From Verrucomicrobiia bacterium (GTDB taxonomy: Bacteria > Verrucomicrobiota > Verrucomicrobiia > JABWAM01), in NCBI GenBank assembly GCA_028687435.1, contig JAQUAF010000011.1:1-64000 (forward strand): DNA of 64,000 bases, given 5' to 3'. Position 1 is the stretch's first letter. Each line of letters starts with the position of its first letter. The position numbers were made by a program, and so were the translations under genes. Positions 4,161 to 11,175 of this stretch are shown here, piece after piece. The notes under the pieces were generated by a model. The model had not been told where the DNA came from. It did not search any database and saw only the letters and a program-made list of their open reading frames with translations.

Positions 4161-4235
4161 AGGGATGAGAAAATATCGTGTGACCGAGGCGCCAAGGCAT
4201 TGGGGCGGCGGGAGGAAAAATTACGCGTCAAACGA

Positions 4236-4784
4236 ATGACACAAGTGGGACATAGCATCATGGGAGCCACTGTTGCGGTGGCATTTCTTCCATGGAAAAC
4301 GGGTTTTCTGAAGAAAATCGCGGTGATGGCGGTTTTTGTTTTTTTGGCAAACCTTCCGGATGCTCCGGTTCCTTGGTGGGGACACACGCGGTACGACATC
4401 AGCCACAGCATTTTTGTCAATGGATTGCTGGCGGCGGCGGTTGCTGTCCCGCTGGCTTTTTATTTGCGTTCCCGCCGTGTGGCGGGCGCCGGGACATTGG
4501 TTGCGGGGGGCGCATTGGCTTGGTTGAGCCATCTTCTTCTGGACACATTTTACAATCATGGAAAGGGGCTGGCTGTTTTCTGGCCTTTTGGTTCCGGGCG
4601 GGTTGCGCTGCCCGTGCCGTGGTTTAAAACATTAAACGGCCATCCGCTGCTTCCCCAAATTGATGCGTACACCGCCAGGCTTTATCTCATTGAGATGGCT
4701 TTCTATGGGACGCTATTCGCGCTCGCGCTGGTCATTCGCTGGTTGATCGAACGGAGGTTTTCGAGGCGGACTGCCGCAGGTTGA
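4236..4784 (+). CDS. YdjM/DUF457-like membrane-bound metal-dependent hydrolase
   Basis: A 182-residue membrane protein with the conserved pattern of the YdjM (DUF457) family: H6 in GHSIMG, NLPD at 39-42, H50, the HS pair at 57-58 and SHLLLD at 98-103. These His/Asp residues are the proposed metal ligands of a membrane-embedded hydrolase related to phospholipase C-like folds. The substrate is unknown. The start at ATG 4236 places the first conserved His near the N-terminus as in homologues; a TTG at 4200 in frame would add 12 charged residues and has poor support. It lies 75 bases after the preceding gene and ends 6 bases from the stop of a minus-strand gene, so the two converge. Confidence 0.75.
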   Translation: MTQVGHSIMGATVAVAFLPWKTGFLKKIAVMAVFVFLANLPDAPVPWWGHTRYDISHSIFVNGLLAAAVAVPLAFYLRSRRVAGAGTLVAGGALAWLSHLLLDTFYNHGKGLAVFWPFGSGRVALPVPWFKTLNGHPLLPQIDAYTARLYLIEMAFYGTLFALALVIRWLIERRFSRRTAAG

Positions 4785-4790
4785 TCTGAA

Positions 4791-4982
4791 TTATGCGCTT
4801 GGATCAATTTTGAATGTGATTGCAGGTGAACACCTGTGTGCACATGTAGGTAATGGGGGGGGGGGGGGGGTGTCTGACGCAGCGTACTGACTGCCTGCCA
4901 CTTGTGCGAGGAGTTCCTGATCCAGGATGTTTTCATCCGAAGATTCCTTGCAGTTGGGGAGTTCATTGATTTCGGTTTTCAT
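4791..4982 (-). CDS. 63-aa putative RiPP/bacteriocin-like precursor peptide
   Basis: A small gene with ATG at 4982 and a good ribosome binding site, AAGGA about 7 bases upstream. The N-terminal part is acidic and leader-like (MKTEINELPNCKES...), ending in DQELLAQVAGS at residues 21-31, which resembles the double-glycine leaders of bacteriocin and RiPP precursors (G-S instead of G-G). The remainder, residues 32-63, is a core-like segment with five consecutive prolines and CAHRC (Cys47, Cys51). The prolines come from a run of 16 C on the coding strand, so any slippage changes the C-terminus. No peptidase-transporter or modification gene of a classic type is nearby, though an FGE-like protein lies just upstream. 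The function is inferred only from leader resemblance. Confidence 0.5.
   Translation of the reverse strand: MKTEINELPNCKESSDENILDQELLAQVAGSQYAASDTPPPPPLPTCAHRCSPAITFKIDPSA
4855..4870. repeat. 16-base G homopolymer inside a small gene
   Basis: Sixteen consecutive G on the plus strand. On the minus strand it encodes five prolines of the 63-residue peptide gene. A tract of this length is prone to slipped-strand changes in vivo and also to sequencing or assembly error. One base gained or lost would replace the C-terminal CAHRC-containing segment with a different sequence. Confidence 0.9.
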
Positions 4983-5134
4983 GATTTTTCCTTTTGTTTC
5001 ATTTCCTCGGGATCCAATGAGCAGCTTCCATGCCATGCAGGAAATGGCGTTTTTGATGGGGATTCAGTGGTTCTACCGTCTTTCAGTAGAGCTCCGGCTC
5101 GTTTCAAATAGAGAGACTCATGCAAAACCAATGC

Positions 5135-5152
5135 CTCCCCTGGCAAGGGGAG
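5135..5152. repeat. short CTCCCCT/AGGGGAG hairpin
   Basis: Seven-base perfect arms with a GGCA loop lie between the FGE-like gene and the peptide gene, downstream of the former. There is no T run, so it is not a standard terminator. It resembles the other CCTCC/GGAGG hairpins at 35916-35968 and 38186-38206. Just beyond, 5164-5180 carries the GCGTCGAGCGTCGAGC motif seen again near 12104, 21561 and 35990. Confidence 0.6.
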
Positions 5153-5215
5153 ATGGGGTTTTCGCGTCGAGCGTCGAGCATGCTCCATCAAGCCGTCTTG
5201 CTGCCATGCGGCTCC

Positions 5216-6142
5216 TTAATTTTGGGCCATCAGGGAGAAGGATTCGAGGACGCAGCGGAATCCCCGGTCGGCGGCGCGGCGCGCGGCGCAACCCAGATTG
5301 TGGCAGGGAAGTGAGATGGGCGACAGATTGGGGATGGCGGGAGGGGGGCCGCCACGGAGCACGCGGTATTGGCCATTGCGTTCGACAGGGTCCATGCACC
5401 ATTCCCAAATGAGTCCTCCCATGGCGGTTGCTCCCGCCGCCCTATCCCATTCCCGGCTGTTGGGCAGGCGATAGTGTTGATGGGCGCCGAGATGCCCCAT
5501 GGCCCGTTCCCGATCAGTCAGCCAATCGCAAAAGGTCATGGCGTCTTCCCAACTGACATTGACCGCCAGTCCGTGTTTATTTCCGGTTTGCCAGTTGTTT
5601 CCGGCGGAATAGCGGGAGGTGGTGGCAAATGCCCGGTACTCGTCAACATGGGTTGGTTTTACGGCCATCCAAACCCTGCCGGCTTTGGTGAACTGCATGC
5701 CGATGGAGTTTTTCCACAGATTCCCCGGAGGGGTGGCGGTGGGTTTTGCGAAAGGAATGAGGGAAGAAGATTCCTGTGGTCGGAGAGGACTGGATCGAAA
5801 AGTTGACAGGCTCAGGACGATCGCGCTTGCAAGGAGGATGCAGGCGGTTGTGCCTGCAAGAATGCGGCGTGAAATTCCGCGTTGACAGGGGGGGGATGAC
5901 GGCAGGGGGGCATCGACTTCGTTTTCCCGGGACGGTGCGGGGCGTGGACGTTTTGCCGCGCCGACAACCACCTGGTATTCCCGGCGTCCTTGTTTGCCGG
6001 CAAAGGTGATGGAAACAGCCAGCCCGCCTTGTCCGGGCGCCGGACGGTTTCTGCCGGAAGGCGCGGGATATCCGCAATGCGGGCAACTTGCCGCATGGGT
6101 GGATACCGCTTGGGCACATTCAGGGCAGGGGCAGAGGCTCAT
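5216..6142 (-). CDS. zinc-ribbon, single-TM, FGE/SUMF1-like domain protein
   Basis: A 308-residue protein in three parts. An N-terminal double zinc knuckle has CPEC (C6, C9) and CPHCGYP (C20, C23). A membrane span lies at about 94-114. A C-terminal domain of about 165 residues carries formylglycine-generating-enzyme (SUMF1/EgtB/PvdO) hallmarks: NVSWEDAMTFCDWLT, RLPNSREWDRAAG, IWEWC, YRVLRGG and RGFRC. FGE-like domains oxidise cysteine or act in other metal/O2 chemistry; many bacterial paralogues only bind ligands. This copy is shorter than typical FGE domains, so catalysis is uncertain. Topology predicts a cytoplasmic zinc ribbon and an outside FGE-like domain. It precedes the 63-residue peptide gene on the same strand by 230 bases. 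Confidence 0.8.
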   Translation of the reverse strand: MSLCPCPECAQAVSTHAASCPHCGYPAPSGRNRPAPGQGGLAVSITFAGKQGRREYQVVVGAAKRPRPAPSRENEVDAPLPSSPPCQRGISRRILAGTTACILLASAIVLSLSTFRSSPLRPQESSSLIPFAKPTATPPGNLWKNSIGMQFTKAGRVWMAVKPTHVDEYRAFATTSRYSAGNNWQTGNKHGLAVNVSWEDAMTFCDWLTDRERAMGHLGAHQHYRLPNSREWDRAAGATAMGGLIWEWCMDPVERNGQYRVLRGGPPPAIPNLSPISLPCHNLGCAARRAADRGFRCVLESFSLMAQN

Positions 6143-8242: not shown

Positions 8243-9334
8243 ATGAAATACGTGGACGAATACCGGGATGCGGGGGTGGTTGCCAGATTGGCCGGAGCCG
8301 TGCGCCGGGTGGTGACGCGTCCATGGACGATCATGGAGGTATGCGGCGGACAGACCCATGCGATCGTCAAATACGGAATCGATGAATTGTTGCCAGGGGA
8401 AGTGGAGCTTATTCACGGACCGGGATGTCCGGTTTGTGTCACCCCCCTGGAGTTGGTGGACAAGGCCGTCGAGATCGCATCGCGTCCGGAAGTGATTTTT
8501 TGTTCCTATGGCGATATGTTGCGCGTGCCGGGCAGCCGGCGGGATTTGTTTGAAGTCAAGGCCGCGGGAGGGGATGTAAGGATGCTTTATTCGCCCATGG
8601 ACGCGGTGAATCTGGCCCGGGAAAACCCGGGACGGCAGGTGGTTTTTTTTGCCGTGGGATTTGAAACCACGGCGCCGGCCCATGCGCTGGCGGTTCAGCA
8701 GGCCCGGCAGATGGGGGCGCGCAATTTCAGCCTGTTGATGTCGCATGTGCTGGTGCCTCCGGCCATCAAGGCCATTTTGAGTTCTCCAGATTGCCGGGTG
8801 CAGGGATTCCTGGCCGCCGGGCATGTTTGCGCCGTGATGGGGTTTGAGGAGTACGAGCCGATCAGTCAAAAATACAAGGCGCCCATCGTGGTGACGGGGT
8901 TTGAACCGGTGGATGTGATGCAGGGAATCCTGATGACCGTCTGTCAACTTGAGGAGGGACGCGCGGAGGTTGAAAATCAATACAGCCGTTCCGTGCGGCG
9001 GGAGGGCAACCGGGGCGCGAGGGAATTGATGGGGAAGGTGTTCCGGGTGGTGAATCGCAAATGGCGGGGAATCGGGGAAATCCCGGAAAGCGGTTTGGGT
9101 TTGAGCGATGAGTATGGGGAATTCGACGCCGAGAAACGGTTTGGTCTGGCGGATTACCATGTGAGGGAGGATCCCGAATGTCTCAGCGGCCTGGTCTTGC
9201 AGGGAAAGAAAAAACCCTCGGAATGTCCCGCGTTTGGCGGTCGATGCAATCCGGATCATCCCTTGGGCGCGACCATGGTTTCCTCGGAAGGCGCCTGCGC
9301 TGCGTATTACCGCTACCGGCGGACGGCGGGGTAA
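8243..9334 (+). CDS. hypD: [NiFe]-hydrogenase maturation protein HypD
   Basis: A complete 363-residue HypD. With HypC it holds the Fe(CN)2CO unit during assembly of the [NiFe]-hydrogenase active site in the cytoplasm. Signature blocks are all present: MEVCGGQTH (31-39, C34), [10 protein letters not shown] (59-68), FAVGFETT (136-143), AGHVCAVMG (192-200) and C-terminal cysteines C313, C328, C335 and C352 for the [4Fe-4S] cluster. ATG 8243 follows TGAGG closely. No hypC, hypE, hypF, hypA/B or hydrogenase structural gene is in the window, so hypD is isolated here. Its stop codon abuts a 350-bp inverted-repeat element. Confidence 0.97.
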
Positions 9335-9682
9335 GGAGCCGCGCAAAAATTACTTCACATTCTGCTGGAGGGGATTTGGCCGGATGGCAAGGCGCGAGCG
9401 ACGAGCCCTTCGGCAAGCTCAGGACTCGTCCCGAGCGGGAGTCGAGGGGCGAGCATACCCTTCATGGGTGTCCATATCCGAGCAATCCGCCTTTGGCGGA
9501 CCAGCCGGCCAAAGCCCCCCAGCCCGCAGGGGCGCGGCAGCGTGCAGGCATCTGCGGTCCCGCTGTGCGGGATCAGCCCCGCTCCTGCGGGGTCCACGAG
9601 GGATATTCTCCTTCCTCGCGCCTGGCATCTGCCTGCACGGTGCTTTTGCCAGAATGTGAATTAATTTTTGCGCGGCTCCTAA
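9332..9682. mobile_element. 350-bp MITE-like element with 32-bp terminal inverted repeats
   Basis: Positions 9332-9363 and 9651-9682 are inverted copies with only two mismatches over 32 bases; each contains AGGAGCCGCGCAAAAATTA. The roughly 290 bases between them are GC-rich and have internal inverted segments, including a copy of the motif CCTGAGC..GTC/GCCGAAGGG (9406-9423). I see no convincing gene inside. It sits precisely between the convergent genes hypD and the secretin-like gene, and its left end overlaps the hypD TAA. No transposase is present, so mobility would need help in trans. Target-site duplication was not established. Confidence 0.6.
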
Positions 9683-9685
9683 GGA

Positions 9686-10579
9686 TCATTCCTTGTAATC
9701 CGGACGCGGGGGGAGTTCCTCAATCACCGCGCGAAGCTTGAGTTGCACCTGGCGGGCGCTGCCTCCCTGCTGGTACGTCTGGAAAAAACGGCGCATAAAT
9801 TCGCTGTCCTTGCTTTGCAAACCTCCCAAGTCCACCTCCTGGCCGTCCATAACGGTGACCTCCGTGGCGAGTTGCTGGACTTCCGTGATCAGCCATTGCC
9901 GGTCAACCAGCCGGTTGAGGGTGGGCACCAGGCGGATGCGGATGAAGCCGTTGGGCAGGACGAAAGGTTGCACCGCCAGTTTGGCGCCGACTTCCTTCCA
10001 TTGCGGTTCGGTGGCCCACAATCCATAGGGCGCCCCCCAGAAAAGGAACCATCCCACGTCGGGGATTTCCTCGCTGACGTTGATCATGGCCTTGCATCCG
10101 CTTGCGACGAGGATCTGTTGCTGGGTGTTGGAATCGGACATCACGTCCACCGTGCGGGCGCGCACTTGTATTCCACGCTGGGTTCCCGGCGGTCCCCGCT
10201 GGATGGTTGCATTGCCCACCCGTGTGTTCCATGTTGCGTCGATTTGCCGGCTGTTGCCCTGGGAATTGTCCAGTGATCGGACAAAGATCCGGACATTGCT
10301 CACGGGCGCCGTCCACGGCTGGTATAGGACACTGATTTTTTTTTGAATTTCCGGACGGTCGAGAACCATCAGCCGTTTGTTTTTGAAATCCTCAATGATC
10401 CGTCCGTCGGCGGAAAGCATGGGTTGGATGGTGGCCGCGGCTTTTTTAAACTCCTCGGGCTGGATGGCGTAGGCTTGGAGGTCGGGAGTGGACGAAGATG
10501 GAGCCTGGGCCGGGAGAACCATCGGGCAAGCCCAGAACATCCAGCATATCCAGGGGAGACGCATTTGGAGAAGGATCAA
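9686..10579 (-). CDS. secretin-like domain protein, exported
   Basis: A 297-residue protein with an N-terminal signal peptide (hydrophobic to about residue 24, cleavage near PAQA). The C-terminal third resembles the secretin module of GspD/PilQ proteins: a block like GAKLAVQPFVLPNGFIRIRL, then TEVTVMDGQEVDLGGL, the usual G-x-L-x-V-P and dG-x-x-xx-LGGL strands. It is far shorter than a true secretin and lacks several N-domains, so it may be a secretin-derived accessory protein. The start is taken as TTG 10579, which overlaps the preceding stop (TTGA) and has GAGGAAA upstream; ATG 10564 is a fair alternative. It is cotranscribed with the nitroreductase. Confidence 0.6.
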   Translation of the reverse strand: MILLQMRLPWICWMFWACPMVLPAQAPSSSTPDLQAYAIQPEEFKKAAATIQPMLSADGRIIEDFKNKRLMVLDRPEIQKKISVLYQPWTAPVSNVRIFVRSLDNSQGNSRQIDATWNTRVGNATIQRGPPGTQRGIQVRARTVDVMSDSNTQQQILVASGCKAMINVSEEIPDVGWFLFWGAPYGLWATEPQWKEVGAKLAVQPFVLPNGFIRIRLVPTLNRLVDRQWLITEVQQLATEVTVMDGQEVDLGGLQSKDSEFMRRFFQTYQQGGSARQVQLKLRAVIEELPPRPDYKE

Positions 10580-11091
10580 AAGCGCCAGATTTCCTCGCAG
10601 GTCATTTGCGCCATGCCAAGGCGCGATCGGGGGGAGGGGGTTTCCGCGGGATAACCGATGGGAAGAAGGTTCACCACCCGGATTGCGGCGGGAATGGAGA
10701 GCAGATTTTTAACCTTGTTTTCATCGAAAGCGCCGATCCAGCATGTGCCCAATCCCAGTTCGACCGCCCGGAGCGTCATGTGATCAATGGAAATGGCCAG
10801 ATCGATGGGATAACATTTCTGGCCGCAGGTCATGATGTGTTCGTTGGTGTCGGCGCAGCAGACCAAGACAACCGGCGCCTCGGCGACGAAAAACTGTTGG
10901 CGGGCGGCTTCGGCAAGCTGGCGGCGGCGGGTGGAATCCTTGACCGCGATATACCGCCATTCCTGCCGGTTGCTGGCGGATGGAGCGATCCGGCCCGCCT
11001 CAAGCACGGCATGGAGTTTGTCCGGTTCGATATCCCGGTTTTGAAAGCGGCGGATGCTCCGCCGGGAGAGGATGGCTTCTTCGACGGTCAT
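10576..11091 (-). CDS. nitroreductase family FMN-dependent oxidoreductase
   Basis: A 171-residue cytoplasmic flavoprotein. The N-terminal SRRSIRRF is the FMN-phosphate-binding segment of the nitroreductase family, and APSASNRQEWRY is the second FMN-contact motif. GLGTCWIGAF and LPIGYP are the conserved C-terminal blocks. Family members reduce nitro compounds, quinones, enones or flavins with NAD(P)H; the physiological substrate cannot be read from sequence. Its stop overlaps the start of the secretin-like gene. It is divergent from prmA, with 84 bases between them. Confidence 0.9.
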   Translation of the reverse strand: MTVEEAILSRRSIRRFQNRDIEPDKLHAVLEAGRIAPSASNRQEWRYIAVKDSTRRRQLAEAARQQFFVAEAPVVLVCCADTNEHIMTCGQKCYPIDLAISIDHMTLRAVELGLGTCWIGAFDENKVKNLLSIPAAIRVVNLLPIGYPAETPSPRSRLGMAQMTCEEIWRF

Positions 11092-11175
11092 AAGGGGAAT
11101 TTAGCGCCGCAGGGGTTGGGACTCAAGTTGCAAAAAGCTTTGGCGATCAGGGACAAGGACTGTTAAAAAGGGGAG

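What the first reader, a model, noticed from the sequence alone, without database searches (positions are those of the whole stretch)
4791..4982. RiPP-like 63-residue peptide gene with a 16-base slippage tract in its core
Seen: good ribosome site, leader-like N-terminus ending DQELLAQVAGS, a core with PPPPP and CAHRC, and a C16 tract on the coding strand. Known: double-glycine leaders end GG/GA/GS and mark exported or modified peptides; long homopolymers phase-vary. Inference: a secreted peptide whose C-terminus could switch between alternative sequences by slippage. Two other frames after the tract also stay open for many codons.
Basis: partly seen in the sequence, partly recalled or inferred. 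Interest (0 to 1): 0.66.

Follow-up and report, generated by a model that had tools for sequence, protein, structure and literature searches.

The report
Lanthipeptide precursor with slippage-prone core junction
A verrucomicrobial genome carries a small gene for the raw form of a ring-bridged secreted peptide, one of four scattered copies that probably share one modifying enzyme and one exporter, and a run of 16 identical bases where its leader meets its product could let the cell switch which product is made, although switching itself has not been shown.

Summary
Window 4791-4982 (-) is a 63-codon ORF with a ribosome site, a leader ending VAGS and a C16 tract, the longest C/G run in the 5.97 Mb genome (the next two are C12; about 0.005 runs of 16 or more expected). 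The RiPP reading is supported and sharpened. The genome has three more genes with the same leader (consensus ITDEELLxxVAGG), two with the core TCSxxTCRAQQC, one just upstream of the only LanM. That LanM passes its curated cut-off and falls in the CCG-motif (ProcM-like) clade. A complete NHLP export set lies on another contig. So this is a class II lanthipeptide precursor (LanA), probably modified and exported in trans. The slippage reading is plausible, not proven. After the tract, codon usage favours the frame needing 14 or 17 C (ITYMCTQVFTCNHIQN*), not the assembled frame, though non-coding DNA is not excluded. The LanM-linked paralogue also has a Cys-rich tail out of frame with its leader, by a different repeat. 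This fits a contingency switch, decay, or a miscounted tract; read-level tract lengths would decide. No orthologue was found in 383 other genomes of the class, so conservation could not be tested.

The parts
4791..4982 (-). LanA-type precursor peptide gene (63 codons as assembled, stop included)
   Evidence: ORF and ribosome site read directly; matched by a leader-family profile together with three paralogues in the genome, E 6e-28 (the sequence is one of the four in the profile); leader DNA homologous to paralogues, z 13.1, 5.8 and 5.1
4988..4993 (-). Ribosome binding site AAGGAA
   Evidence: direct reading
4890..4982 (-). Leader, MKTEINELPNCKESSDENILDQELLAQVAGS, double-glycine type (GS) cleavage site for a C39 peptidase
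   Evidence: alignment with paralogue leaders ending VAGG/VAGG/IVGG; C39 peptidase present in the genome; the cleavage itself is inferred
4855..4870 (-). C16 homopolymer near the start of the core, coding TPPPPP
   Evidence: longest C/G run in the genome
4794..4854 (-). Tail in the assembled frame (16 C): LPTCAHRCSPAITFKIDPSA
   Evidence: two Cys, but codon usage unlike host genes (synonymous score -0.63, GC3 0.25)
4804..4854 (-). Alternative tail (14 or 17 C): ITYMCTQVFTCNHIQN followed by stop; the most coding-like frame
   Evidence: synonymous score +0.11, GC3 0.62; end-anchored similarity to the C61 core p 0.03 and to the C132 core p 0.08
4703..4854 (-). Third frame (15 or 18 C), Cys-free, runs into the antisense of the YdjM gene; probably not a product
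4200..4784 (+). Neighbour, YdjM-like membrane protein, convergent; not thought to be part of the system
   Evidence: PF04307, 41.7 bits over cut-off 29
5216..6142 (-). Neighbour upstream, FGE-sulfatase (SUMF1) domain protein; not thought to be part of the system
   Evidence: PF03781, 41.7 bits over cut-off 23.3
5134..5153 (-). Terminator-like hairpin between the FGE-sulfatase gene and the precursor, suggesting a separate transcript
   Evidence: consensus scan only

Best explanation
The gene encodes a class II lanthipeptide precursor (LanA), one of a scattered four-member family in this genome. Shown: a shared leader across four genes; one LanM of the CCG (ProcM-like) type; a complete NHLP export set with a C39 peptidase; a C16 tract between leader and the Cys-bearing part of the core; and a coding-like Cys/Thr tail out of register with the leader at the assembled tract length. 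Inferred: the LanM recognises the common leader in trans, dehydrates Ser/Thr and closes thioether rings with the core cysteines; the NHLP C39 transporter cuts after VAGS and exports the product; and slipped-strand mispairing in the C tract changes which tail is joined to the leader. At 16 C the product would carry TCAHRC, at 14 or 17 C it would carry MCTQVFTC, and at 15 or 18 C it would carry no core cysteine and so no ring. The tract would then act as a contingency switch between two cores and an off state.
For: Paralogues with the same leader, at E 2e-27 to 1e-16 to the family profile built from them, two sharing TCSxxTCRAQQC. LanM: TIGR03897 731 bits, cut-off 304; DUF4135 and LANC_like; Zn motif WCHG...CCG. 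Single CCG group in the tree, support 100. NHLP set TIGR03796, TIGR03794, TIGR03797 all over cut-off, adjacent. Tract is the longest C/G run in the genome. Frame evidence: a real-gene model prefers the 14/17 C frame over the assembled frame by 13.3 log units, a margin that no real 16-codon segment reached in favour of a wrong frame. Precedent: double-glycine peptide genes napC and napR in Neisseria, judged phase-variable from poly-T and poly-G tracts (PMC11798529).
Against: Only one tract length is known; no second strain or reads. Core similarity between this gene and the paralogues is weak in any frame. Against an AT-rich shuffled null the coding model for the tail is not significant (p 0.16; best-frame score alone p 0.02). 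The LanM and exporter are not near this gene, so processing in trans is inferred. The leader departs from the family at several positions (ILDQ for ITDE, GS for GG).
Confidence: 0.45

Rival explanations
1. A decaying LanA paralogue: a spare precursor no longer under selection, whose C-rich core junction expanded by unopposed slippage and lost its frame. No product of use is made.
For: Leader differs from the family at otherwise shared positions; the assembled tail has un-host-like codons; the LanM-linked paralogue is also out of frame with its Cys-rich tail, which fits general decay of precursors as well as switching; non-coding null for the tail not rejected.
Against: Leader, ribosome site and start are intact and leader DNA is still strongly similar to C61; no stop in the leader; two Cys with Thr/Ser remain in both Cys-bearing frames.
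Confidence: 0.27
2. A working LanA with a constant core; the tract is miscounted by the assembly (true length 14 or 17) and the real peptide ends ITYMCTQVFTCNHIQN.
For: Draft assembly in 154 contigs; homopolymers are error-prone (general knowledge); the coding-like frame needs just this change and it gives a short tail of paralogue-like length.
Against: A run of 14-17 C would still be the longest in the genome and still prone to slippage, so this shades into the main explanation.
Confidence: 0.16
3. A working LanA in the assembled frame: the core is QYAASDTPPPPPLPTCAHRCSPAITFKIDPSA, with a polyproline spacer and a TCxxxC ring motif, and the tract has no regulatory role.
For: Frame is open to a natural stop; LPTC-A..C resembles LTTCSAQTC of C132, though not significantly (p 0.11).
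Against: Codon usage of the tail is far from host genes (synonymous score about -0.64 against 0.19, sd 0.14).
Confidence: 0.08
4. Chance ORF, not a peptide gene.
For: No Pfam, NCBIfam or PDB match for the peptide itself; no homologue in relatives.
Against: Leader homology to three paralogues at protein and DNA level, one of them next to LanM.
Confidence: 0.02

Closest known systems
Prochlorosins / ProcM-type class II lanthipeptides (CCG-motif LanM)
   Same: Single LanM with the CCG zinc motif, several precursors spread over the genome, conserved leader and differing cores.
   Different: Leader here is a short double-glycine type, not the long Nif11-type leader of prochlorosins; four precursors found, not dozens; host is a verrucomicrobium, not a picocyanobacterium; a homopolymer sits at the leader/core junction.
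Short-leader class II lantibiotic-like precursors of Bacillaceae/Paenibacillaceae (at L107, L110, L126, L136)
   Same: Short precursor with leader ending (S)DEELxxVAGG directly before a Cys-rich core, near LanM.
   Different: Their LanMs are CHG type; leader similarity to this family is weak (E 0.4 or worse); no long C/G tract.
NHLP bacteriocin export systems (TIGR03794/03796/03797)
   Same: All three export components present and adjacent in this genome.
   Different: The precursors matched no nitrile-hydratase or Nif11 leader family; the export genes lie on another contig.
Phase-variable Nap peptides of Neisseria gonorrhoeae (napC, napR)
   Same: Double-glycine peptide genes with homopolymer tracts that shift frame (PMC11798529).
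   Different: Nap peptides have features of class II microcins; length variation among isolates is documented there, not here; here the tract lies after the leader, so it would swap the core and keep the leader.

Membership tests
Class II lanthipeptide precursor (LanA) | Short ORF with a leader conserved among precursors and a Ser/Thr/Cys-bearing core | tested here: met
   Leader shared with three paralogues; core has 2 Cys and several Thr/Ser in the assembled and in the 14/17 C frame
Class II lanthipeptide precursor (LanA) | Cognate LanM in the genome | tested here: met
   TIGR03897 731 bits over 304 at C71:5472-8798, next to a paralogous precursor
Class II lanthipeptide precursor (LanA) | Precursor gene adjacent to LanM (usual, not required: prochlorosins) | tested here: not met
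   No LanM in the window; the sole LANC_like hit is on another contig
Class II lanthipeptide precursor (LanA) | Dehydration and thioether rings in the product | not testable with these tools
   needs mass spectrometry
ProcM-like (CCG) LanM system | CCG instead of CHG zinc motif and placement in the CCG clade | tested here: met
   QCCCGNLG in the alignment; CCG group is one side of a branch, support 100, own enzyme inside; meaning of the motif from PMC10027976. ProcM itself was not in the tree
ProcM-like (CCG) LanM system | Multiple unlinked precursors per LanM | tested here: met
   Four precursors on C61, C71, C101, C132; one LanM. That one enzyme acts on all four is inferred
Prochlorosin family proper | Nif11-type leader | tested here: not met
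   No Pfam or NCBIfam hit of the leaders to Nif11 or NHLP families
NHLP export substrate | Double-glycine type site and a C39-bearing TIGR03796 transporter | tested here: inconclusive
   Both present; cleavage not tested and the leader is not of NHLP type
Simple-sequence contingency (phase-variable) locus | Long homopolymer inside an ORF | tested here: met
   C16, genome maximum
Simple-sequence contingency (phase-variable) locus | Tract length varies among cells or strains | not testable with these tools
   One assembly; no congener held; no match elsewhere

The most novel reading that the evidence does not exclude
A lanthipeptide contingency locus: a C16 tract at the leader/core junction keeps the leader constant and swaps between two Cys-bearing cores and a Cys-free off state, with the LanM-linked paralogue using a 35-nt direct repeat (73-nt spacing) to the same end, so that a promiscuous CCG LanM is fed products that vary within a clone.
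Probability: 0.3. Interest if true: 0.75.

Novelty: new variant of a known kind. Interest (0 to 1): 0.5.

Why it matters
Promiscuous CCG LanMs are known to tolerate many cores; how genomes generate those cores is a live question. A homopolymer placed just after a leader would be a simple way to vary the product within one clone without touching recognition or export. In six literature searches of the open library I found phase-variable double-glycine peptides (Neisseria Naps) but no report of a lanthipeptide core behind a slippage tract; most subscription papers are not in that library. Even without switching, it adds a scattered ProcM-type system in a verrucomicrobial lineage whose close relatives lack it.

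Tried and rejected
Pfam, NCBIfam, PADLOC and PDB searches with the peptide gave no hit. Search of 57 genomes of relatives with the peptide gave only chance-level matches outside this genome; the family profile found no precursor in 383 other genomes of the class except one weak core-only match. The first genome-contig scan with the LanM alone found nothing; the alignment-based scan worked. Core-to-core alignment in three frames, by protein and DNA, was not significant, so the frame argument rests on codon usage and a weak end-anchored similarity. I considered the two C12 tracts as parts of a genome-wide contingency set and rejected it: they lie in an AraC-type regulator ORF and at the end of a membrane-protein-like ORF, with no leader. 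The neighbouring FGE-sulfatase protein was considered as a modifying enzyme and set aside: no evidence links it. The third frame (15 or 18 C) was rejected as a product because it is Cys-free and overlaps the antisense of the YdjM gene. No inverted repeat of 10 or more bases was reported next to the tract. Viral contigs and plasmids hold no copy.

Full report
What is there. On the minus strand of the window, 4982 to 4791, lies a 63-codon ORF with a ribosome site AAGGAA just before its ATG. The leader MKTEINELPNCKESSDENILDQELLAQVAGS is followed by QYAASDT, five prolines from a run of exactly 16 C (+ strand 4855-4870), and LPTCAHRCSPAITFKIDPSA. It sits between a convergent YdjM-like gene and, upstream on the same strand, an FGE-sulfatase domain gene followed by a terminator-like hairpin. 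No RiPP enzyme was recognised among the large ORFs read in the first 40 kb of the window.

Is the tract unusual? In the 5.97 Mb genome only two other places reach 12 C/G, both exactly 12, in ordinary ORFs. The run-length decay measured in 152 kb of the genome predicts about one run of 12 or more and about 0.005 of 16 or more. One C/G run of 10 was the only one of that size around 80 LanM loci from other organisms.

What the gene is. A search of the genome with the peptide gave two weak matches that turned out to be short ORFs with the same leader: C61 MKGNIENNEANIDDSPVEKITDEELLQDVAGG/QGAGDLRPTLVTCSMLTCRAQQC and C132 MNDDKREKEKNQIPPSKPNEEITDEELLRQVAGG/QGVGDMRNTLTTCSAQTCRAQQC. A third, on C71, MKTEIEEVRTSQTDEFFGEITDEELLMGIVGG/KGAG..., starts about 320 bases before the start of a large ORF. 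That ORF is the genome's only LANC_like protein and scores 731 bits to the LanM model against a cut-off of 304. A profile of the four finds just these four in the genome (these are the sequences it was built from, so the point is the absence of more). Leader DNA of the window gene is homologous to the paralogues (z 13.1, 5.8, 5.1) and the 120 bases upstream of it match those of C71 (none of 500 shuffles as good). The genome's only C39 peptidase is in an NHLP exporter with its HlyD and second ABC subunit side by side, each over its cut-off. So the gene is a class II lanthipeptide precursor; processing by these enzymes in trans is inferred.

The enzyme. The LanM has the WCHG and CCG zinc motifs, and aligned with three other LanM-like proteins of the class it keeps the invariant D391, H393, N396, D408 and E410 of the dehydratase domain. 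Its best matches in 84,980 species genomes are CCG enzymes, mainly cyanobacterial, at about 30-34% identity. In a tree of 78 rows the CCG enzymes form one group, support 100, with ours inside. CCG LanMs are described as the promiscuous type, ProcM serving precursors spread over a genome (PMC10027976). LanM is rare in the class: 4 of 384 genomes over the cut-off, none in the four other genomes of the family. The class includes a record named Verrucomicrobiales (L141 and G339:C120 share contig length and LanM position), so the host is taken to be a verrucomicrobium. Precursors with this leader are absent from the other 383 genomes apart from one weak core-only match.

Which frame is the core? 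With 16 C the tail is LPTCAHRCSPAITFKIDPSA; with 14 or 17 it is ITYMCTQVFTCNHIQN; with 15 or 18 it is Cys-free and long. The 14/17 frame has host-like codons (synonymous score 0.11, GC3 0.62), like the C61 and C132 cores (0.12, 0.14) and real genes (0.19, sd 0.14); the assembled frame does not (about -0.64, GC3 0.25). Under a model trained on window genes, the 14/17 frame beats the assembled frame by 13.3 log units; no real segment favoured a wrong frame by that much, although single 16-codon calls are right only 84% of the time. The end-anchored match to the C61 core has p 0.03, to the C132 core p 0.08. Against shuffled DNA of the same composition, however, coding is not significant (p 0.16; best score alone 0.02), and local core alignments are not significant. 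So: if the tail codes, it most likely codes in the frame that the assembled tract length does not reach. These are several looks at one short stretch, chosen after seeing it.

A second hint. In the C71 precursor a 35-base segment recurs 73 bases downstream with 3 mismatches (73 is not a multiple of three). As assembled, the leader reads into ...FHPPPPMSCRLD and stops, while a tail LVGWIESYNAETPVMFCLATKLCPPQKC lies in another frame; reading with one copy of the unit left out joins leader and tail. Two of four precursors thus have a Cys-rich tail out of register behind a DNA repeat. Switching and decay both predict this; it does not separate them.

Mechanism, most likely. Shown: family, enzyme, exporter, tract, frame mismatch. 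Inferred: leader-guided LanM action in trans, C39 cleavage after VAGS, ring formation, and slippage choosing among two Cys-bearing tails and a Cys-free one. I put the LanA identity at about 0.88 and slippage with a biological role at 0.3 to 0.45; decay (about 0.27) and a miscount (about 0.16) are the main rivals. The nearest precedent is the Neisseria nap island, where double-glycine peptide genes carry variable poly-G and poly-T tracts (PMC11798529).

Limits.

Noticed in passing
L015 (G000:C71) 5151-5425: Precursor next to LanM carries a 35-nt direct repeat (32 of 35 identical) 73 nt apart that leaves a Cys-rich tail out of frame with the leader.
   Followed up: partly
L015 (G000:C71) about 5294-5314: Between the two repeat copies lies ACCACCCAAGGGGTGGTTTTT, which by eye looks like an intrinsic terminator inside the precursor; the consensus scan did not list it.
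   Followed up: no
L072 (G361:C43) 4168-4635 and 10808-11104: Another CCG LanM locus of the class has neighbours with long leaders ending LSDEDLEEVAGG / LSDEDLEKVAGG and Cys-bearing cores, resembling Nif11-type precursors by eye.
   Followed up: no
window 5134-5158: Terminator-like hairpin downstream of the FGE-sulfatase gene; only one copy in the window.
   Followed up: partly
L074 (G000:C91) 8840-10537: 565-aa ORF directly upstream of the NHLP HlyD gene on the same strand, no NCBIfam match at 1e-60; possible extra part of the export operon.
   Followed up: no
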